Shown one piece after another: positions 150-15,665 of a stretch of 42,362 nt of DNA; positions within the stretch are counted from its first letter, which is position 1, and each line of letters starts with the position of its first letter. Source of the DNA: Dysgonamonadaceae bacterium. Its GTDB lineage: Bacteria; Bacteroidota; Bacteroidia; Bacteroidales; Dysgonomonadaceae. The stretch covers positions 1 through 42,362 of the forward strand of contig JAQVZQ010000002.1 of the NCBI GenBank assembly GCA_028708095.1, in the 5' to 3' direction. A program made the position numbers and the translations under genes. Below the pieces are notes generated by a model. It was given only the letters and a program-made list of their open reading frames with translations. It made no database searches and was not told the DNA's origin.

Positions 150-445
150 ATGCTTTACAATTCTACTTACTCCGTTACTCTAATTGGAATATGACAAACT
201 GATTTACACAACTCAGTTGATCTAATTGCTACATGACAATTTGATTTCACCAACTCAATTATTCTAATTGCAAAGTGATAGTTTTATTTTCATTAACTTA
301 ATTACTCAGATTGTAACATGACAAATCAATATCCAGAAAACTTTTAGTGTGAATGTAACATGACAATCTAATATCCACAAACTCATTTAATCTGATTGTA
401 ACATGACAATCTGATTTTTTGATTGAAATTCAACGAAATGTAACA
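150..445. repeat. Tandem array B: diverged 42/43-bp repeat, about 7 copies
   Basis: Units begin at about 150, 191, 233, 275, 318, 360 and 403, so the spacing is 41, 42, 42, 43, 42 and 43 bp. Each of the last six starts with a form of ATGACAATCTGAT and most end in TCTGATTGTAAC. The unit junction is an inverted repeat; at 394-411 it is perfect, GATTGT and ACAATC around AACATG. Copies are diverged, with no identical unit pair. No open reading frame runs through the array. The function is unknown. Confidence 0.8.
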
Positions 446-611
446 AAAAAAATCTTTATAAGATGCAAAAGTAACAATGTGTAAGTCTGCAAAATTACAT
501 CTAAAAGCATCATTAAGATGAAAGCAATCTACAATGTGTGAAAATAGTGTGGATTAGTTAATAAACATTATTACCATGCCACCAAAACATTTCGAAATGA
601 GAAATCATAAC

Positions 612-790
612 TTGACAATCTAACAAACACACTTGCGGAAATGATATTGTAAGTTGACAATTCTAACAACCACACTAGTGGAAATCATATTGTAAGTTGA
701 TAATCTAATATCCGCACTTGCGGAAATCAAATTGTAGGTTAACAATCTAATATTCGCACTTTCTAAAATCAAATTGCAACATGACAATTC
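612..790. repeat. Tandem array C: related 42/43-bp repeat, about 4 copies
   Basis: Units start at 612, 654, 697, 739 and (partial) 781, with spacing 42, 43, 42 and 42. They share the TTGACAATCTAA and ATTGTAAG ends of the array at 150-445 but have a different middle with CACTTGCGGAAATC. Junction dyads ATTGT/ACAAT are perfect at 646-661 and 731-746. A second dyad lies mid-unit: CCGCA-CT-TGCGG at 712-723 and CCAC-ACTA-GTGG at 670-681. Confidence 0.78.
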
Positions 791-1923: not shown

Positions 1924-4413
1924 TTATAAAAATAACAAGCCTATTTGATGCGTAATTAGCGCAACAAACCAGGCAAGAGAAGTTGTGTAAATAATGACGA
2001 ACAGACCCCATTTCCACGAACCTGATTCTTCTTTGATAGCTACAATGGTGGCAATGCAAGGGAAATAGATTAAAACAAAGAGCATTAATCCTATTGCTAC
2101 AAGTGGTGTAAAAACGGGCGAACCATCAGAATAGGTTTCACTTTTCAACCTTGTTTGAAGCGATTCTTGATTTTCGCTATCGCCTGGATAAAGTACGCCC
2201 AAAGTGCTAATTACAATTTCTTTTGCAGCCATTCCTGAAATGAGACTCACAGATATTTTCCAATCGAAACCTAATGGGCGCATTACAGGTTCAATGAAGT
2301 GGCCTATTTTGCCAATATATGAGTTTTCCTGATGTGAGGAAGCTTGCATTGTTTTGATGTTTGAAACAATACTATCTTTTTTTTGTGCTGTTATTTCACC
2401 TTGCGAAAAGAGGTTAGAAGTTTGCTCTATCTGATTGTCAAATTGTATATCGTTTGCTTGATTGCGAGGGAAATATCCTAAGAACCAAATGACGATGGAT
2501 GCAATAAGGATGATACCTCCCATCTTTTGTAGATACTGACGCGACTTATCCCACATATGTGTAACTGTAGACTTTACTGTTGGCATACGATAGGGTGGTA
2601 ATTCCATTACGAATGGTGTGTTTTCTTCTTTGAATAGTGTTTTGCGGAAAAGTTTTGAAAGTATTACTGCAAGTAAAATACCAAATATGTAAATACTGAA
2701 CAGTGCAATACTGGCATGTTTTGGAAAGAATGCACTTACAAACAAAATGTAAATTGGCAATCGGGCACTGCACGACATTAGCGGATTAATGAGCATTGTA
2801 ATCATTCGGCTACTGCGACTCTCAATGGTGCGTGTTGCTAAAATAGCGGGAACATTGCAACCAAAGCCCATAATAAGTGGGATAAATGATTTGCCATGTA
2901 GGCCTATTTTATGCATTACTTTATCCATGATGAAAGCTGCGCGTGCCATGTAGCCAGAGTCTTCCATGAATGAAATAAAAGCGTAGAGAATAACAATATT
3001 GGGCAAGAAAACAATAACACCGCCAACGCCACCCACTATGCCATCAACTAACAAATCTTTTAGTGGGCCGTCAGCCATATTGGCACGGATAAAGTTTCCA
3101 ACTACTTGCACAACCCACTCAATCCATTCCATGGGATAACTACCCAGACGGAATGTCGCTTCAAACATAACCCACATGAAGACAAAGAAGAGTGGAAATC
3201 CGAAATACTTATTCGTTACAATTGTATCAAGTATGCGAGTTGTTTCAGAAATATTAGTCTTTTCAGAAAGCGTTTCTCTCAATCCTCCATCAACAAATCC
3301 ATACCTGGCATTGGTGAAAGCAGATTCTGGATCTTCTCTCAGCAAGTTTTCTATATAGTTTCGTTCCCTTTCAACCCTTGAGAAAATTTTCTCATGATGG
3401 GGGAGAGTACGAACGATTTCTTGAATGTCTTTATCGTTTTCGAGTAGTTTGATGCACAAATAACGTAAAGGCATATTTAAATGTGAGATATCAGTATCCT
3501 CAAACTCTTGCTCCAGTCTTGAAATTGACTTCTCAAGGACTCTTCCGTAAGAAATGTGTACGTTGCCACTTCCATTTTGAGATTGGCTTTCATACATTTC
3601 AATGATTTTGTTCAACATGGCGGGTATGCCAAATCCTTTCTTGCCAATGGTAGGGATGATTGGGATATCAATCATTTTAGAGAGCAAAGAATAATCGAAC
3701 TCTCTTTTGCTACTTTGCAGCTCATCATACATATTTAGTGCTATAACCATGGGAGCATCGAGCTCCATCAACTCGGTGGTTAAGTACATGTTGCGTTCAA
3801 GTGATGAGGCAGACACAACATTGATAATGATATCAGGTTTTTCGTCTAAAATGTATTTTCTAACAAACAATTCTTCGGGTGTATATGCCGAAAGAGAATA
3901 GGTGCCAGGTAAATCTATCATTCTAAAGGTATACCCGTTGTGCTTTAATTTACCTTCTTTTGAATCGACAGTTACGCCACCATAGTTACCAACGTGTTCA
4001 TGCGAACCTGATGCAATATTAAAAATGGATGTTTTGCCTGAATTGGGATTACCCACCAATGCAACAGTAATTGTTTTGGAATCTTTATGCTGTTTAGGTG
4101 ATGGTTCAGCATGTTTATTTTGGTTTTCTGCAATAGGTTCTTCTCTGTCGATATCATATGAGGTTTTTTCATATAAAGGAATATCATGTTTGACCATCGA
4201 TATTTCAATCATAACAGCTTCGCTACGACGCAACGAAACCTCATATTCCATAATATGATATTTGATTGGGTCTTTTAGTGGTGCATTAAGAATTGAGGTA
4301 ACCTCCTGACCACGGACAAACCCCATTTCCAGTAAACGCTTACGGAAAGCACCGCTACCATTTACTTTTACTATATAGGCTTTTTCGCCTGTGTGAAGTT
4401 CGGATAAACGCAT
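1924..4413 (-). CDS. feoB: Ferrous iron transporter, FeoA-FeoB fusion
   Basis: This 829-residue inner-membrane GTP-gated Fe2+ transporter has a FeoA (SH3-like) domain fused to its N-terminus, about residues 1-75. A charged linker (about 76-113) leads to the G domain. There G1 is GNPNSGKT at 121-128, the switch I Thr lies in GGVTVD at 145-150, G3 is DLPG at 167-170 and G4 is NMYD at 227-230. Multiple transmembrane helices follow, including the conserved GFGCNVPAI segment of the FeoB core. Free-standing FeoA is therefore not needed here; the fusion is common in Bacteroidetes. The ATG at 4411-4413 has no Shine-Dalgarno sequence, as expected in this phylum. The Cys-rich partner follows 33 bp downstream. 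Ferritin at 17.0-17.6 kb suggests ferrous uptake and storage in an anaerobe or microaerophile. I could not identify a Fur box with confidence. Confidence 0.96.
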   Translation of the reverse strand: MRLSELHTGEKAYIVKVNGSGAFRKRLLEMGFVRGQEVTSILNAPLKDPIKYHIMEYEVSLRRSEAVMIEISMVKHDIPLYEKTSYDIDREEPIAENQNKHAEPSPKQHKDSKTITVALVGNPNSGKTSIFNIASGSHEHVGNYGGVTVDSKEGKLKHNGYTFRMIDLPGTYSLSAYTPEELFVRKYILDEKPDIIINVVSASSLERNMYLTTELMELDAPMVIALNMYDELQSSKREFDYSLLSKMIDIPIIPTIGKKGFGIPAMLNKIIEMYESQSQNGSGNVHISYGRVLEKSISRLEQEFEDTDISHLNMPLRYLCIKLLENDKDIQEIVRTLPHHEKIFSRVERERNYIENLLREDPESAFTNARYGFVDGGLRETLSEKTNISETTRILDTIVTNKYFGFPLFFVFMWVMFEATFRLGSYPMEWIEWVVQVVGNFIRANMADGPLKDLLVDGIVGGVGGVIVFLPNIVILYAFISFMEDSGYMARAAFIMDKVMHKIGLHGKSFIPLIMGFGCNVPAILATRTIESRSSRMITMLINPLMSCSARLPIYILFVSAFFPKHASIALFSIYIFGILLAVILSKLFRKTLFKEENTPFVMELPPYRMPTVKSTVTHMWDKSRQYLQKMGGIILIASIVIWFLGYFPRNQANDIQFDNQIEQTSNLFSQGEITAQKKDSIVSNIKTMQASSHQENSYIGKIGHFIEPVMRPLGFDWKISVSLISGMAAKEIVISTLGVLYPGDSENQESLQTRLKSETYSDGSPVFTPLVAIGLMLFVLIYFPCIATIVAIKEESGSWKWGLFVIIYTTSLAWFVALITHQIGLLFL

Positions 4414-7428: not shown

Positions 7429-9684
7429 ATGAATGCTTTCAGATATTGGTTAACAGCAGCAATTGTTATTATCATGTCGTGGACATTGAACACGACGAGT
7501 GCTCAAAAGAATATTGTAATTGAAAATGATCAACTACAATTAGTAATCGGAGATAATGCTATAACAAAAAGCTTAGTTTATAAGCCCACTAATGAGGAGT
7601 GCTTAATCGCACATGATAGCATTCCCATATTTTCAGTTACTCAAGAGAGGCCCTATCACAATGAAATTAAGTTGGCACACCCCAACAAGAGGATGACCTT
7701 TAAGGCAAATTCAATTAGAAGGGAGGGCAATAAACTGGTTGTTGGTTTTGAGCTTGTACCATATGATGCGGTTATCCGCATAAAAGAGACACCTGATTAC
7801 ATAGCCTTCACATTCGAAGATTTTATAATCCATCCGAATGCATATCCTACCTGGTTTGGGATAACTCCACCCCCAGCAACCGAAATTTGCTTCTTGCAAC
7901 TACCGATACGCAATCGTAAAAACTTTGGAGAATGGTTGAATGTAAGTTGGGATGACAAAATTGCTGTCAATGTGTTGGGTACTGACCAATATGCCCGTAT
8001 AGATGCCGACGAACGCAATGGTTATCGCATATTGAGGGCTGATGCTGTGAAAGATGTCAGGTTGAGAGATGTGGGGGCAGCTTTAATTGTTACAAATTCC
8101 GAGAATTTATTAGACAAAATTGCTCAAATTGAAGAAGATTACAATCTTCCGAAAGGTGTGAAGAGTCGAAGAGACTGTCAAACCAAATTATCTTACTATT
8201 GGTCGGGCAATGTGAATCTACAGAACCTTGACCAACATCTGAAATATGCTAAAATGGGTGGATTTCGCAACTTTATGATTTACTATCCTGCCTTTTTAGC
8301 AGGTAGTGGATACAGAAACTTGGGCGATTATGACTACAATAAATCGCTTTTCCCCAATGGAAAGGACGATTTGCAGTCGATGTTAAAGAAAATTGAAGGT
8401 GCTGGTCTCATTCCTGGACTACATGTATTGCATTCGCATATTGGTAGAGACAGCAGATATGTAACTCCTATACCTGACCATCGCCTCAATATGTTGAGAT
8501 ATTTTACTTTGGCAAAACCGTTGAGTATGGATGACACTGAAATATATGTTTCGAAAAATCCAGTTGAAACTAATTTGGCGGATGGCACCCGTGTGCTGAA
8601 AATTGGGTCAGAGTTAATATCTTTTGAGAGCTTTACCACCATTGCACCCTATAAATTTATTGGATGCAAGAGAGGTATTGACAAAACAACCATAAACGCT
8701 CAGCCTGTTGGCTATACTTTTGGATTGTTGGACGTAAGTGAGTTTGGAGCTACAAGTGTATACATCGATCAGGATACAGATTTGCAAGATGAGGTAGCCG
8801 AAAAAATAGCAGACATCTACCGTGCAGGATTTAAATACATTTATTTCGATGGTTCGGAGGGTGTGAATGATCCATTCTGGTTTCATGTCGCATCTGCACA
8901 ACATAAAGTTTTCAAACGATTGGAACCTCAACCATTATTTGCCGAAGGTGCAGCCAAAACACATTTCAGTTGGCACATGTTGAGTGGGGGAAATGCATTT
9001 GATGTATTTCCACCCGAGACTTTGAAAGAAGAAATACGCAAATGGCCCTCAGAAGAAGCACCGCGGATGCAGCAAGACTTCACCCGTATCAATTTTGGTT
9101 GGCTTGGTTATGTGGTACCCAATGAAAAAACAATTGGAACGCAGCCTGATATGTTGGAATTTGTAACCAGTAGGGCTGCTGCTTGGGATTGCCCCGTTTC
9201 TATTCAAACAAACATAAGCAAGTTTGAAGAACATCCTCGAACTGCTGATAACTTTGAGGTTTTTCGTCGCTGGGAAGAGGCTCGGGTTCAGAATTGGTTG
9301 ACCGATGCACAGAAAAAGGATTTGCAAGATTTGCAACAAGAGCATATTTTGTTGTTAGATGAGAAAGGTAAGATGGAACTACAACCTTATCATCAAATTG
9401 AACATGTTGCTCATGGAAGTAAAGAGGTGCGTGCTTTTATCTTTCAACGAGGAGCAGACATGTATGTAGTTTATTGGCATACCTCTGGTAGTGGTAAAAT
9501 GAAATTGCCATTGGATAAATCAAAGGTTCAACTGTTTGAAAAGCTTGGAAAGAAAGAATCGTTTAAGTCGGCACAGAAGGGTTCAATTGTGATTCCTGTT
9601 TCTAACAGACGTTATTTAAAAGCAACTAATATGAGCAAGGATCAGCTCATAAATGCATTCGGTGAAGCCGAGATTATAAATTAA
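7429..9684 (+). CDS. Exported glycoside-hydrolase-like barrel protein
   Basis: This 751-residue protein has a Sec signal peptide (about residues 1-25, ending TTSAQ). An N-terminal beta-rich region (about 27-240) precedes a probable (beta/alpha)8 barrel. The barrel has strand-like acidic motifs, notably YFDGSEG at 472-478, where Asp474 and Glu477 are candidates for active-site acids as in retaining alpha-glycosidase clans. A small beta domain ends the chain. An insert at about 365-430 (LKIGSELISFES..) resembles one I associate with a family of uncharacterised Bacteroidetes barrel proteins. I cannot assign a GH family or substrate. It is followed by a phosphatase and a DUF4855 lipoprotein on the same strand, which suggests an exported glycan-processing set without a SusCD pair. 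Confidence 0.7.
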   Translation: MNAFRYWLTAAIVIIMSWTLNTTSAQKNIVIENDQLQLVIGDNAITKSLVYKPTNEECLIAHDSIPIFSVTQERPYHNEIKLAHPNKRMTFKANSIRREGNKLVVGFELVPYDAVIRIKETPDYIAFTFEDFIIHPNAYPTWFGITPPPATEICFLQLPIRNRKNFGEWLNVSWDDKIAVNVLGTDQYARIDADERNGYRILRADAVKDVRLRDVGAALIVTNSENLLDKIAQIEEDYNLPKGVKSRRDCQTKLSYYWSGNVNLQNLDQHLKYAKMGGFRNFMIYYPAFLAGSGYRNLGDYDYNKSLFPNGKDDLQSMLKKIEGAGLIPGLHVLHSHIGRDSRYVTPIPDHRLNMLRYFTLAKPLSMDDTEIYVSKNPVETNLADGTRVLKIGSELISFESFTTIAPYKFIGCKRGIDKTTINAQPVGYTFGLLDVSEFGATSVYIDQDTDLQDEVAEKIADIYRAGFKYIYFDGSEGVNDPFWFHVASAQHKVFKRLEPQPLFAEGAAKTHFSWHMLSGGNAFDVFPPETLKEEIRKWPSEEAPRMQQDFTRINFGWLGYVVPNEKTIGTQPDMLEFVTSRAAAWDCPVSIQTNISKFEEHPRTADNFEVFRRWEEARVQNWLTDAQKKDLQDLQQEHILLLDEKGKMELQPYHQIEHVAHGSKEVRAFIFQRGADMYVVYWHTSGSGKMKLPLDKSKVQLFEKLGKKESFKSAQKGSIVIPVSNRRYLKATNMSKDQLINAFGEAEIIN

Positions 9685-9710
9685 TTATAAATTGTTGTAA
9701 ACAATGAAGA

Positions 9711-9748
9711 TAAAAGGGGGGCGTCTGTTCTAATTTTCGTCCCTTTTA
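9711..9748 (+). terminator. Possible hairpin between the two exported-enzyme genes
   Basis: TAAAAGGG (9711-9718) can pair with CCCTTTTA (9741-9748), giving an 8-bp stem with a long loop. It lies in the 82-bp gap after the barrel protein. There is no strong T run, so it may be a weak terminator or stabilising 3' hairpin. Confidence 0.3.
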
Positions 9749-9766
9749 ATCTGACAATCATAAAAA

Positions 9767-10939
9767 ATGATAGCTATGAATATAAAATTGTTTCTCACGA
9801 ACTTGTTTTTTTTCTTATCGTTACTACTTGTTGCCCAAAAGATACAAATTACCCATGGGCCATACCTTCAAGCCATGACAGAAGAGGGAGTAACCATTGT
9901 GTGGACCACCAACAAGGAGTCAGTTTCGTGGGTAGAAATTGCACCTGACGGTAACGATAGTTTCTACGCACAAGAGCGCACACCGTTTTATGATACAAAG
10001 CATGGCAATAGGGTGATAGATTCTTTGCACACAGTGAGGGTTGAGGGATTGCAACCTGGAACAACTTATCGTTACCGCATTTTCTCGAAAGAGGTGTTGG
10101 GAAATCAAGGTCATCGCATCATGTATGGAAACATTGCTTCTACAGATGTGTATCGTAAGAAGCCATTTAGCTTTACCACGCTCAATAAAAATAAATCGGA
10201 CATCACTTTTAAGATGGTTAACGACATCCACAACCGAGCAGATATGCTTAGCAATATGTTGCGAGATGTAAAGCGCGAAAATACCGATCTTGTGCTCTTC
10301 AATGGCGACATGGTTTCAACAATGACGAACGAAAAAGTTATTTTCGATGGTTTTATGGATAGCGTTGTAACGCTCTTCGCAACAGAAGTGCCCATATTTT
10401 ATGCTCGTGGCAATCATGAAACGCGCGGTGCGTTCAGTGTTAAGTTTCCAGACTACTTCCCCACCACTACCAATAACCTTTATTATACATTCAGGCAAGG
10501 ACCTGTACAATTTATTGTGCTGGATGGAGGAGAAGATAAACCCGATTCGGACATCGAATACTCAGAATTGTCGCAATTTGATGCTTACCGAACCAAACAA
10601 CAAGCGTGGCTGAAAGACATTGTTGAAACTGCCGAATATAAAGAGGCACTCTATCGTGTTGTGGTTATTCATATACCTCCTGTGGGATCGACATGGCACG
10701 GAACGCAAGATTTGCAACGTAAATTCCTGCCCATTCTAAATAGTGCAGACGTGGATATTATGCTTTGCGGTCATACCCATAATTACGAATACATCAAACC
10801 AAACAATATTACATCGTTTCCCATTCTTATAAATGACAATGAAACCTATCTTGATGTAAAAGTTAATCAGAAAGAGATGGAACTGCTGGTAAAAGATCCT
10901 AAAGGGACGGAGATGCACAAAGTGGTAATCCAGAAATAG
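9767..10939 (+). CDS. Exported purple-acid-phosphatase-like metallophosphoesterase
   Basis: This 390-residue enzyme is predicted to be exported (hydrophobic N-terminus ending LLVAQ near residue 24). An N-terminal fibronectin-like purple acid phosphatase domain (about 26-138) precedes a calcineurin-like phosphoesterase core. The metal ligands are visible in order: Asp153 and His155 in NDIH, Gly180-Asp181 in NGDM, GNHE at 215-218, His302 in VIHIPP, and GHTH at 335-338. It should be a dimetal phosphomonoesterase or phosphodiesterase of the periplasm or surface; the substrate is unknown. Two ATGs, at 9767 and 9776, are both possible starts. It lies 82 bp after the barrel protein and about 190 bp before the DUF4855 lipoprotein. 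Confidence 0.88.
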   Translation: MIAMNIKLFLTNLFFFLSLLLVAQKIQITHGPYLQAMTEEGVTIVWTTNKESVSWVEIAPDGNDSFYAQERTPFYDTKHGNRVIDSLHTVRVEGLQPGTTYRYRIFSKEVLGNQGHRIMYGNIASTDVYRKKPFSFTTLNKNKSDITFKMVNDIHNRADMLSNMLRDVKRENTDLVLFNGDMVSTMTNEKVIFDGFMDSVVTLFATEVPIFYARGNHETRGAFSVKFPDYFPTTTNNLYYTFRQGPVQFIVLDGGEDKPDSDIEYSELSQFDAYRTKQQAWLKDIVETAEYKEALYRVVVIHIPPVGSTWHGTQDLQRKFLPILNSADVDIMLCGHTHNYEYIKPNNITSFPILINDNETYLDVKVNQKEMELLVKDPKGTEMHKVVIQK

Positions 10940-12770: not shown

Positions 12771-12917
12771 GATTGAGAACATATCGGCTATGCATTCATT
12801 CTTTTAGTGTTGTTGTTTGCTACGTAAAAGACAGGAATTATTCACCGAATTACACATATCAGAATACTTGGAGGGCATATAAAAAAAATAGTAAGCAGGG
12901 ATTGCCGAAATAATGAG

Positions 12918-12950
12918 AAAGAGCAGATGTAGTGTCTGCTCTTTTCTATT
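12918..12950 (+). terminator. Intrinsic terminator after the DUF4855 gene
   Basis: GAGCAGA (12921-12927) and TCTGCTC (12935-12941) form a perfect stem that extends through flanking AAA/TTT pairs to about 10 bp. It is followed by TTTTCTATTT. It ends the exported-enzyme gene group. Confidence 0.8.
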
Positions 12951-12956
12951 TACTTC

Positions 12957-12988
12957 CTTGCTTATAAACACTATTAACCGTAAATTTG
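12957..12988 (+). promoter_or_regulatory. Bacteroidetes-type promoter for the barrel protein gene
   Basis: TAAATTTG at 12981-12988 matches TAnnTTTG, and CTTG at 12957-12960 lies 20 bp upstream as the -33 element. It implies transcription from about 12995 and fixes the next start codon at 13012. Confidence 0.7.
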
Positions 12989-13011
12989 AATTTCATCATA
13001 AATTATGTGTC

Positions 13012-13725
13012 ATGAAAACAAGATTAACGCTGCTTTTCCTTCTTATCGTGTCTATTGCACAGGCACAATACGACTATTATTACGATGATCTCATGTTTGG
13101 TGTGGGTGTTGGCTACAACTTCATCTCTATTGTGGACGATGACGTTCGTCCCATCGAGTTATCTTTTAAATGTCGCATCAACGACGACCATTTGTTGCAA
13201 CTCTATGTTCCTTTTTTGAGGCAGGATGATTTGTTCAAATCGAATGGACACCCCGAGATGGAACTTATTGCTACATCACTTGACACCAAGAAACGATTGT
13301 ATGGTTTCGGATTGGAATATGATTATGTGTTGCAATCATTTTTCTTGTTAGATTTCGTTGTTGGGTTGAGGAGCGATTGTCAACTCTACAAATATCGGAC
13401 CGATTTAACCAATACATATCCGTCGGGGAGTGCCGAGTCGAGCAATCTCTCTAATGCCTCCGACCACACGTTTCGAGATATGAAGAACCTCAACTTTGTG
13501 GTTAGTCCCAATGTTGGAATGAGGGTCAATGTAAATAAATTTTCAATCGACGCCAAGTTTTTATTGTCCATGCTGTCAATGCGAGGAGATATTGACAACC
13601 GCATCGAGGCAAAAGAGCCCGCATTATCAAGTGCGATTTCAATTTCAAGGGAGTGGACCGAAGATATTTCAAACAAATTTAAGTTGAAACCAGGCATCAT
13701 GTTGTCCATGTCTTATTTTTTCTAA
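13012..13725 (+). CDS. Outer-membrane beta-barrel protein
   Basis: This 237-residue protein starts with a clear Sec signal peptide (MKTRLTLLFLLIVSIAQAQ, cleaved near residue 19). It continues with alternating aromatic and polar strands and ends in SMSYFF, a terminal aromatic typical of outer-membrane barrels. An acidic, Tyr-rich stretch (YDYYYDD) follows the signal. I see no plug or peptidoglycan-binding domain and cannot name the cargo. The longer frame from 12913 is rejected because its start lies before the promoter and inside the preceding terminator. The gene appears monocistronic, between a terminator and a repeat array. Confidence 0.8.
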   Translation: MKTRLTLLFLLIVSIAQAQYDYYYDDLMFGVGVGYNFISIVDDDVRPIELSFKCRINDDHLLQLYVPFLRQDDLFKSNGHPEMELIATSLDTKKRLYGFGLEYDYVLQSFFLLDFVVGLRSDCQLYKYRTDLTNTYPSGSAESSNLSNASDHTFRDMKNLNFVVSPNVGMRVNVNKFSIDAKFLLSMLSMRGDIDNRIEAKEPALSSAISISREWTEDISNKFKLKPGIMLSMSYFF

Positions 13726-13801: not shown

Positions 13802-14221
13802 GTTCTGTGCACAGAAACCTTACAAAGTGTCAACCAAATAGGGTTTCTGCAAACAGAAAGCACTCTCGTTAACGTCAGTGATACCTTTCTGCGTGCAGAA
13901 ACCTATCTCGTTAACCTCGGTGATACCTTTCTGTGTACAGAAACCTATCTCGTTAGCTTCAGTGACACCTTTCTGTGTACAGAAACCCTCCACGTTAACT
14001 CACTTGACTACTTTCTGCACGCAGAAACCCTCTGTGTTGAATAAAATGACCACTTTCTGTGTACAGCTAATATCTCAAAATTGACAGAATCACCTAAATC
14101 ACCAGAAAAAGCACCCACTTTATAAAATGTACACCCTAAATCACCAGAATAACCCTCCACGCTTTTTAAGATGACCCCTAAATTGACATAAAGACCATAT
14201 TTGTCAACTTTATCGTATATT
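13802..14221. repeat. Tandem array A: ten units at exactly 42 bp, with dyads
   Basis: Units start at 13802, 13844, 13886, 13928, 13970, 14012, 14054, 14096, 14138 and 14180, each exactly 42 bp apart. Units 1-6 begin with a dyad TTTCTG-nnnn-CAGAAA (the first reads GTTCTGTGCACAGAA). Units 2-5 carry GTTAAC or GTTAGC about 19 bp further on. Units 7-10 keep the period but lose the dyad, most starting AAATCACC or AAATTGAC. The array fills the gap between the barrel gene and the methyltransferase promoter at 14216. Confidence 0.93.
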
Positions 14222-14223
14222 TG
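14216..14223 (+). promoter_or_regulatory. -7 promoter box of the RNA methyltransferase gene
   Basis: TATATTTG matches TAnnTTTG, 33 bp before the ATG at 14256. No clear -33 TTTG is seen at the right distance. The last unit of the 42-bp array overlaps this box, so the array reaches into the promoter. Confidence 0.6.
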
Positions 14224-14255
14224 CACCCTAAAAAACAGACAGACAACAAAAACAA

Positions 14256-15665
14256 ATGGCAAAGAATAGAAGAGAACTCCCCTTGCACGAAGGGGTCGAA
14301 ATAGTAAGTGTGGCAGCAGAAGGTAAATCGATTGCAAAAGTGGACGGTCTCACGGTATTTGTGCCGTTTGCGGTGCCTGGCGATGTGGTGGATATTCAAA
14401 CTTACCGCAAGAAAAACAAATTTGCTGAGGGACGCGTTGTCCGTTTTGTTGAATACTCGAAAGATAGGGTATCGCCCGTTTGCGAACACTTTGGAGTGTG
14501 TGGCGGATGCAAATGGCAAATGTTGCCCTACCCATTACAACTCAAAAACAAGCAACAACAAATTGAGGATAATCTCACGCGCATCGGCAAAGTGGAGTTG
14601 CCCGAAATATCGCCCATCATGGGTGCGCCCGAAACAACGTTTTATCGTAACAAACTGGAATTTACTTTCTCGAACAAGCGTTGGCTGACCGAAAAAGAGA
14701 TTAACAGCGACAAGGAGTTTTCCCAAATGAATGCATTGGGTTTCCACATTCCTGGCATGTTTGACAAAGTGTTGGATATAAATAAATGTTGGTTGCAAAC
14801 CGATGCCTCAAATAAGATACGCAACTCCATTCGTGAGTTTTGTTTGCTCAATAATTTCGAATTCTTTGACCTGCGTGCACAAACTGGCTTGATGCGCACT
14901 TTGATAATACGCACCACCAGCACGGGAGAGTTGATGGTGATAGTGGTTTTTTTTGAAGACGATGAGGAGAAACGCACTATGTTGATGAAACACCTCGGCG
15001 ATACTTTCCCCGAAATAACTTCTTTGCTTTACATTATAAATGAAAAGAAAAATGACACCATTACCGATCAAGAGGTGATTACTTGGAAGGGGAATGATTG
15101 TATTTATGAAGAGATGGAGGGACTGAAGTTCAAAATAGGACCGAAATCTTTTTACCAAACCAACAGTGCGCAAGCCTATAACCTCTACAAAGTGACACGC
15201 GATTTTGCCCAGCTTTCCGAAACCGACTTGGTGTACGATTTATACACTGGCACGGGAACCATTGCCAATTTCGTGGCGCGAGGGGTGAACAAAGTTGTTG
15301 GGATTGAATATGTGGAGGAGGCAATTGAGGATGCCAAAGCCAATTCATTGGCCAATGGCATTGAAAACACCCTATTTTTTGCGGGCGACATGAAAGATAT
15401 TTTGAACCAAGAGTTCATCCTTGAGCATGGTCGGCCTGATGTTTTGATAACTGACCCTCCGCGAGCTGGCATGCACACCGATGTTGTGGAAACCATATTG
15501 TTTGCCAATCCAAAACGTATCGTATATGTAAGTTGCAACCCTGCAACTCAAGCGCGCGACCTTAATCTATTAGACGAAAATTACAAAGTGACACGTGTGC
15601 AACCTGTGGATATGTTTCCGCACACGCATCATGTGGAAAATGTGGTATTGTTAGAGCGCAGATGA
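14256..15665 (+). CDS. rlmD: RNA uracil-C5 methyltransferase, RlmD/TrmA type
   Basis: This is a 469-residue SAM-dependent enzyme that makes 5-methyluridine in 23S rRNA or tRNA. A TRAM domain (about 10-66) precedes four cysteines placed as the RlmD-type [4Fe-4S] ligands: Cys76, Cys82, Cys85 and Cys178. The C-terminal Rossmann-like domain has FYQTN, the SAM loop DLYTGTGT, DPPRAG and the nucleophile Cys427 in VSCNPATQARDL. The cluster and the length favour the RlmD/RumA group (23S U747 or U1939), but position cannot be decided from sequence. The ATG at 14256 lies 33 bp after a -7 box. The gene converges with the TraB/GumN gene, the two stops being 2 bp apart. Confidence 0.9.
   Translation: MAKNRRELPLHEGVEIVSVAAEGKSIAKVDGLTVFVPFAVPGDVVDIQTYRKKNKFAEGRVVRFVEYSKDRVSPVCEHFGVCGGCKWQMLPYPLQLKNKQQQIEDNLTRIGKVELPEISPIMGAPETTFYRNKLEFTFSNKRWLTEKEINSDKEFSQMNALGFHIPGMFDKVLDINKCWLQTDASNKIRNSIREFCLLNNFEFFDLRAQTGLMRTLIIRTTSTGELMVIVVFFEDDEEKRTMLMKHLGDTFPEITSLLYIINEKKNDTITDQEVITWKGNDCIYEEMEGLKFKIGPKSFYQTNSAQAYNLYKVTRDFAQLSETDLVYDLYTGTGTIANFVARGVNKVVGIEYVEEAIEDAKANSLANGIENTLFFAGDMKDILNQEFILEHGRPDVLITDPPRAGMHTDVVETILFANPKRIVYVSCNPATQARDLNLLDENYKVTRVQPVDMFPHTHHVENVVLLERR

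What the first reader, a model, noticed from the sequence alone, without database searches (positions are those of the whole stretch)
13802..14221. Ten-unit array with exact 42-bp period and covarying dyads
Units start every 42 bp without a single-base drift (13802 to 14180), although their sequences differ. Units 1-6 carry a dyad TTTCTG-nnnn-CAGAAA. The pair just inside it changes together: T..A in units 4 and 5 (TGTA) and C..G in units 3 (CGTG) and 6 (CACG); unit 1 has T..A (TGCA). A second palindrome GTTAAC sits about 19-20 bp away in units 2, 3 and 5. Forty-two bp is four turns of B-DNA, so every dyad faces the same way. The last unit overlaps the -7 box of rlmD. Inference: an array of operators for a symmetric DNA-binding protein, or a nucleoid or segregation site, rather than junk. 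The inner covariation favours double-stranded symmetry over an RNA tetraloop. A minority view is repeat expansion without function.
Basis: partly seen in the sequence, partly recalled or inferred. Interest (0 to 1): 0.75.

Follow-up and report, generated by a model that had tools for sequence, protein, structure and literature searches.

The report
Species-private 42-bp palindrome repeat arrays
This bacterium carries about twenty short intergenic DNA arrays built of 41-43 bp units, mostly with one short palindrome per unit, whose sequences were not found in its relatives; the layout resembles the centromere of plasmid F, but the protein that would bind the arrays, if any, is unknown.

Summary
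The array is real, but it has seven dyad units (13802-14095) plus two in-phase units of other sequence (14096-14179), not ten; "unit 10" is the older rlmD promoter region. The same array (TTTCTG-YNNR-CAGAAA, exactly 42 bp) lies at five loci of the genome; 20 adjacent unit pairs show 279 substitutions and no indel. What is conserved is sequence: arms 96% identical between loci, spacer 55%, central two bases 30%. The genome holds further families with other dyads: ATTGYMANNTKRCAAT (42-43 bp, about eight contigs, including window 175-412 and 608-788), CTTTCGCA-N3-TGCGAAAG (exactly 41 bp, two loci) and others. Apparently all non-coding arrays found here have periods 41-43 (or 84). The sequences seem private to the species, while congener G003 has its own 41/42-bp arrays. 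Arrays lie between ordinary genes; the congener's rlmD locus lacks the array. Not CRISPR, REP/RAYT, parS of the sole ParB, or coding. Best reading: binding-site array for an unknown dimeric DNA-binding protein, with F-parS (sopC)-like geometry. Main rival: selfish or inert satellite DNA.

The parts
13802..13843 (.). unit 1: edge unit, dyad GTTCTG-TGCA-CAGAAA (13802-13817), diverged spacer
   Evidence: 21/42 match to family consensus, background 11.3 +/- 2.8
13844..14053 (.). units 2-6: five 42-bp units, each with dyad TTTCTG-YNNR-CAGAAA at its start
   Evidence: unit model R1 E 9e-10 to 1.3e-5 (these units helped build the model)
14054..14095 (.). unit 7: edge unit, left arm intact, right arm broken (TTTCTGTGTACAGCTA)
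   Evidence: 16/42 to consensus
14096..14179 (.). units 8-9: two in-phase 42-bp units of another sequence (AAATCACCAGAA...), no dyad; similar sequence lies inverted at the C195 array
   Evidence: 28/42 to each other; 72% over 93 bp to C195 on the opposite strand
14180..14224 (+). not an array unit: conserved rlmD promoter region with TATATTTGC
   Evidence: conserved upstream of rlmD in congener G003, which lacks the array
14256..15665 (+). rlmD, downstream neighbour (ordinary gene)
   Evidence: TIGR00479 353.6 bits, cut-off 183.55
12913..13725 (+). upstream neighbour, 270-aa ORF with no NCBIfam match; same synteny in G003
175..412 (.). second array in the window: ~42/43-bp units with dyad ATTGYMANNTKRCAAT
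608..788 (.). third array in the window: 42/43-bp units of the same family, with a second dyad (CCAC-ACTA-GTGG, CCGC-ACTT-GCGG)
   Evidence: 86% copy on contig C308

Best explanation
A tandem array of binding sites for a symmetric (dimeric) DNA-binding protein. Each ~42-bp unit carries one 16-bp dyad with two 6-7-bp half-sites around a free 2-bp centre; about four helical turns per unit put successive dimers on one face of the helix, so they can assemble or bridge. The site appears to act as an array, not as single operators, as the centromere of plasmid F (parS_F/sopC) does. Shown: the dyads, the spacing, sequence-specific conservation of the arms at several loci, intergenic placement, near absence of solitary sites, presence/absence at one locus, sequence not found in relatives. 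Inferred: that a protein binds, that it is a dimer, that helical phase matters, and any role (nucleoid organisation, insulation, segregation, or a selfish element kept by its own protein).
For: Between five loci the dyad arms are 96% identical, the spacer 55% and the central two bases 30% (arms v spacer p=2e-5). Other families in the same genome show the same pattern: ATTGYMANNTKRCAAT, 48 sites v 3 in the reversed control, with random centre; CTTTCGCA-N3-TGCGAAAG, arms 100%, centre 22%, spacer 73% between two loci (the arms were part of the search pattern). Y/R degeneracy next to the centre varies independently on the two sides, as half-sites would and as a base-paired stem would not. No indel against 279 substitutions in 20 adjacent unit pairs. 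Dyad strength exceeds the highest of 60 column-shuffled controls in several arrays. 19 of 20 exact sites lie in arrays. F parS has twelve 43-bp tandem repeats with ten 16-bp inverted repeats (PMC6238139).
Against: No binding protein was identified. The only ParB_N protein (C411) has a canonical parS at C345. The array is absent at the same locus in a congener and no 42-bp-spaced pair of its dyads was found in 392 other Bacteroidales genomes, so the site is dispensable over short evolutionary time. Sister arrays use 41, 42 and 43 bp and centres of 2, 3 or more bases. The neighbours share no evident function.
Confidence: 0.47

Rival explanations
1. Inert or selfish satellite DNA: short palindromes promote slippage and tandem duplication, template switching keeps the two arms complementary, and arrays are copied between intergenic regions by ectopic recombination; no cellular function.
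For: Presence/absence at rlmD between congeners; C195 and C448 arrays share flank that seems to include the 3' end of the upstream gene, so blocks are copied imprecisely; several private families; the 41-bp array at C204 ends with an in-phase unit with changed but complementary arms, CTTTATC-TTGTT-GATAAAG.
Against: Arms are conserved in sequence, not only in complementarity, at 96% between five loci while spacers diverge to 55%. The 42-bp period is held without indels.
Confidence: 0.28
2. REP/BIME-type non-autonomous elements moved by a Y1 (IS200/IS605 or RAYT) transposase.
For: Intergenic palindromes in clusters; eight Y1 matches in the genome.
Against: The Y1 gene flanks that were read show other palindromes, mostly GC-rich, and no array dyad; five of six Y1 proteins tested pass the IS200 cut-off and none the RAYT cut-off; no conserved GTAG/CGTC tag; fixed head-to-tail spacing; 19 of 20 exact sites in arrays.
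Confidence: 0.1
3. Arrays act as RNA: each transcribed unit folds a 6-8 bp stem with a 3-4 nt loop, for termination or 3'-end protection.
For: Stem and loop sizes fit RNA hairpins; where both neighbours are clear, the intergenic gaps are co-directional or convergent, none divergent (small numbers).
Against: No Rfam match; arms conserved as sequence, without compensatory change within the TTTCTG family; dyads of other families have no or long centres (GTTAAC, ATTGTAAGCTTACAAT).
Confidence: 0.1
4. Coding repeat: 42 bp = 14 codons, reading F-C-x-Q-K in one frame.
For: One frame is open across much of several arrays.
Against: Stops in that frame in window units 1 and 7 and in C28; third codon positions are more conserved than first and second; sister arrays have 41- and 43-bp periods; both strands give FCxQK because the dyad is symmetric.
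Confidence: 0.02

Closest known systems
Plasmid F centromere parS_F (sopC): twelve 43-bp tandem repeats with ten 16-bp inverted repeats bound by SopB (PMC6238139)
   Same: Tandem units of 42-43 bp, one 16-bp inverted repeat per unit, about four helical turns.
   Different: On chromosomal contigs, at many loci, several dyad families, no adjacent parA/parB, sequence private to the species, sole ParB has a canonical parS elsewhere.
REP / BIME elements (PMC2817692, PMC3733652)
   Same: Short intergenic palindromes in clusters at many loci, families differing between species.
   Different: No GTAG/CGTC tag, no flanking RAYT, fixed head-to-tail 41-43 bp spacing, practically no solitary copies.
Bacterial minisatellites (VNTR)
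   Same: Intergenic, tandem, presence/absence between relatives.
   Different: Mostly one dyad per unit with arms far more conserved than spacers; nearly the same period in families of different sequence.
CRISPR arrays
   Same: Regular spacing, partial dyads.
   Different: The conserved part is only about 16 bp and the spacers are homologous to one another; cas genes were not searched for.

Membership tests
parS_F/sopC-type partition site | tandem ~43-bp units with one 16-bp inverted repeat each | tested here: met
   42 bp with 16-bp dyad; sister family 42-43 bp with 16-bp dyad
parS_F/sopC-type partition site | cognate ParB-family protein for these sites | tested here: not met
   one ParB_N protein in the genome, and one perfect canonical parS GTTTCACGTGGAAC at C345; a binder without ParB_N, or one missing from the draft genome, is not excluded
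parS_F/sopC-type partition site | parAB operon adjacent to the array | tested here: not met
   ParB_N lies on C411, not on any array contig; array neighbours are other genes
parS_F/sopC-type partition site | protein binding and a segregation role | not testable with these tools
   needs binding and genetics
REP/BIME | GTAG or CGTC tag beside the palindrome | tested here: not met
   left flanks CTAC, ACC, GGG and right flanks CC, GC, GG vary between units
REP/BIME | RAYT gene flanked by the same palindromes | tested here: not met
   flanks of eight Y1 matches searched for the array dyads, none there (some flanks are cut by contig ends)
REP/BIME | more than 100 copies, often solitary or paired | tested here: not met
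   about 24 dyads of this family, nearly all in five arrays
Bacterial minisatellite | tandem array, presence/absence among relatives | tested here: met
   absent upstream of rlmD in G003
Bacterial minisatellite | no position-specific constraint within the unit (inert form) | tested here: not met
   arms 0.96 v spacer 0.55 between loci
Transcription-factor operator | solitary sites at promoters of a regulon | tested here: not met
   20 exact sites, 19 in arrays
Known RNA family | match to an Rfam model | tested here: not met
   only tRNAs in the window
CRISPR array | unique spacers between identical repeats | tested here: not met
   spacers are homologous to each other within and between loci

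The most novel reading that the evidence does not exclude
A chromosomal counterpart of the plasmid-F centromere: many dispersed, species-private dyad arrays on a ~42-bp helical lattice, each family bound by its own fast-evolving dimeric protein, forming nucleoprotein patches that organise, insulate or segregate the chromosome; the period is kept across the genus while the sequence turns over like eukaryotic centromeric satellites.
Probability: 0.15. Interest if true: 0.85.

Novelty: new variant of a known kind. Interest (0 to 1): 0.52.

Why it matters
If arrays with a common ~42-bp period but different dyads recur within one genome and its genus, the period itself is under selection or set by a mechanism, independent of sequence. 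That would point to an undescribed DNA-binding or DNA-amplifying system in Bacteroidales, and it allows a direct test: pull down the protein with a synthetic array, then change the spacing by half a turn.

Tried and rejected
Coding frame FCxQK: rejected. REP/RAYT: Y1 genes have other palindromes. Chromosomal parS: canonical site elsewhere. Viral or plasmid origin: no array of the TTTCTG, ATTGT or TTTCGCA family in IMG/VR; no match to the window array in plasmids or phages. Search of 392 other Bacteroidales genomes for two TTTCTG dyads 27-57 bp apart gave only two pairs, both 33 bp apart, in unrelated genomes; TTTCGCA-N3-TGCGAAA pairs gave only this genome. Unit model R1 in 60 relatives: only chance-level hits, of which two in G003 lie 42 bp apart in phase. 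Family-to-family similarity: some pairs exceed all shuffles (TTTCTG family v G003a z 4.2, 41-bp family v G003a z 6.6), so the families may share one ancestor; suggestive, not settled, since dyads and composition also raise such scores. Literature searches in the held library found no description of 41-43-bp dyad arrays in Bacteroidales.

Full report
WHAT IS THERE. The window (Bacteroidales; nearest named rlmD 77% identical, Bacteroidales bacterium UBA5382) has a tandem array between a 270-aa ORF and rlmD. Dyads TTTCTG-N4-CAGAAA start every 42 bp from 13802 to 14054. Units 1-7 belong to one family, units 8-9 are a second in-phase sequence, and 'unit 10' is the rlmD promoter region: it matches neither its neighbour nor the consensus clearly above background, and its TATATTTGCA is conserved upstream of rlmD in congener G003, where the array is missing. 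In the window only lag 42 (with 43 and multiples) gives strong self-match, at three places: 175-412, 608-788 and this array.

THE SAME ARRAY ELSEWHERE IN THE GENOME. The pattern TTTCTGN4CAGAAA has 20 exact sites in 3.76 Mb; 19 sit in five arrays (contigs C28, C72, C166, C195, C448), successive ones exactly 42 bp apart, and one is solitary on C200. A model of the unit finds the same five loci and no other convincing one. Adjacent units differ by 279 substitutions in 20 pairs without an indel. The pairs are not independent, so this suggests constraint on spacing but is not a formal test.

WHAT IS CONSERVED. Between loci, arms are 96% identical, spacer 55% and the central two bases 30% (p=2e-5 arms v spacer). 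The units were gathered by their dyads, which favours the arms somewhat, but one-mismatch and model searches brought in no array with other arms and the same spacer. Position 7 is always T/C and position 10 always A/G, but they vary independently: TA 10, TG 8, CA 3, CG 3, Fisher p=1.0. Spacer columns C18, G25, T31, G37, A38 and C42 are also well kept. In the FCxQK frame third codon positions are the most conserved, the opposite of coding.

MORE FAMILIES, SIMILAR PERIOD. The two other arrays of the window belong to a family with dyad ATTGYMANNTKRCAAT and periods 42 or 43, found on about eight contigs (C17, C130, C166, C204, C206, C215, C308, C403): 48 sites in this genome v 3 in the reversed control, and 0-2 in congeners, at control level. 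A third family, CTTTCGCA-N3-TGCGAAAG, has period exactly 41 at C87 and C204, with arms 100%, centre 22% and spacer 73% identical between the loci in the better orientation; here the arms were the search key, so the contrast of centre and spacer is the informative part. Others: C52/C103 (41), C403 (41), C206 (43), C308 (43), C44 (42/84). In the fetched DNA of this genome the intergenic arrays, about 20, have periods of 41-43 or 84; the few other periods found (18, 24, 38, 106, 123) look like coding repeats or tRNA genes, which was not checked for each. Dinucleotide-model shuffles give none. These regions were mostly chosen for such hits; 160 kb of unselected contigs held none, so arrays are clustered and their total is unknown. 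In congener G003, scans of 275 kb show arrays of 42, 84 (2 x 42) and 82 (2 x 41) with other dyads, such as TTTCGGA-GACG-TCCGAAA. Elsewhere in Bacteroidales single arrays of 41, 42 and 20-23 bp turned up.

PLACEMENT AND SPREAD. Arrays lie between ordinary genes; where both neighbours are clear the gaps are co-directional or convergent, none divergent (small numbers). C195 and C448 share the array and some flank that seems to include the 3' end of the upstream gene, so arrays can be copied as blocks. None of the three main families was found in IMG/VR, and the window array matches no plasmid or phage record.

INTERPRETATION. Arms constrained as sequence, a free centre, independent half-site degeneracy, practically no solitary sites and near-integral helical spacing fit an array bound by a symmetric protein and used as an array. 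Plasmid F's parS (twelve 43-bp repeats with ten 16-bp inverted repeats, PMC6238139) is the closest known layout. The array may work like that, but it is not shown to be a member: the genome's one ParB_N protein goes with a canonical parS elsewhere, and no parAB adjoins an array. Rivals are selfish or inert satellite DNA (private families, presence/absence), Y1-moved REP-like DNA (no array dyads around Y1 genes), and RNA hairpins. The weakest link is the absence of any candidate protein.

Noticed in passing
window 175-412 and 608-788: Two more ~42/43-bp arrays of another dyad family (ATTGYMANNTKRCAAT) at the left end of the window, next to a feoB gene on the minus strand.
   Followed up: yes
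L297, L298, L299, L300, L303 (contigs C204, C206, C17, C215, C130): ATTGYMANNTKRCAAT arrays flank a shared module across which successive dyads are often exactly 210 bp (5 x 42) apart; several copies end at contig ends, so this looks like a repeated element that breaks the assembly.
   Followed up: partly
L305 (C250:20001-29804) 7875-9800; L168 16958-17302: Four Y1 (IS200/IS605-like) transposase matches on one contig, three of them in close tandem copies flanked by GC-rich palindromes (GCCCTTTCAGGGC, AGGGCGATGCCCT) unlike the arrays.
   Followed up: partly
L179:9038-9253, L184:4183-4373, L247:15527-15788 (congener G003): 42/84- and 41/82-bp arrays with dyads of their own in a congener that lacks the rlmD array.
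   Followed up: partly
L020:7842-8021; L039:1103-1260; L041:4520-4670; L057:6456-6600: Other Bacteroidales carry dyad or direct-repeat arrays at 41 or 21-22 bp, about four or two helical turns; a period-only survey of the order could test whether this is general.
   Followed up: no
L297:1256-1337: The edge units of the 41-bp array at C204 include one in phase with changed yet complementary inner arms (CTTTATC-TTGTT-GATAAAG after CTTTCGCA-N3-TGCGAAAG).
   Followed up: partly
window 1924-4413 (-): FeoB with an FeoA-like N-terminal stretch (residues 20-75 match a FeoA model), probably a fused FeoAB.
   Followed up: no
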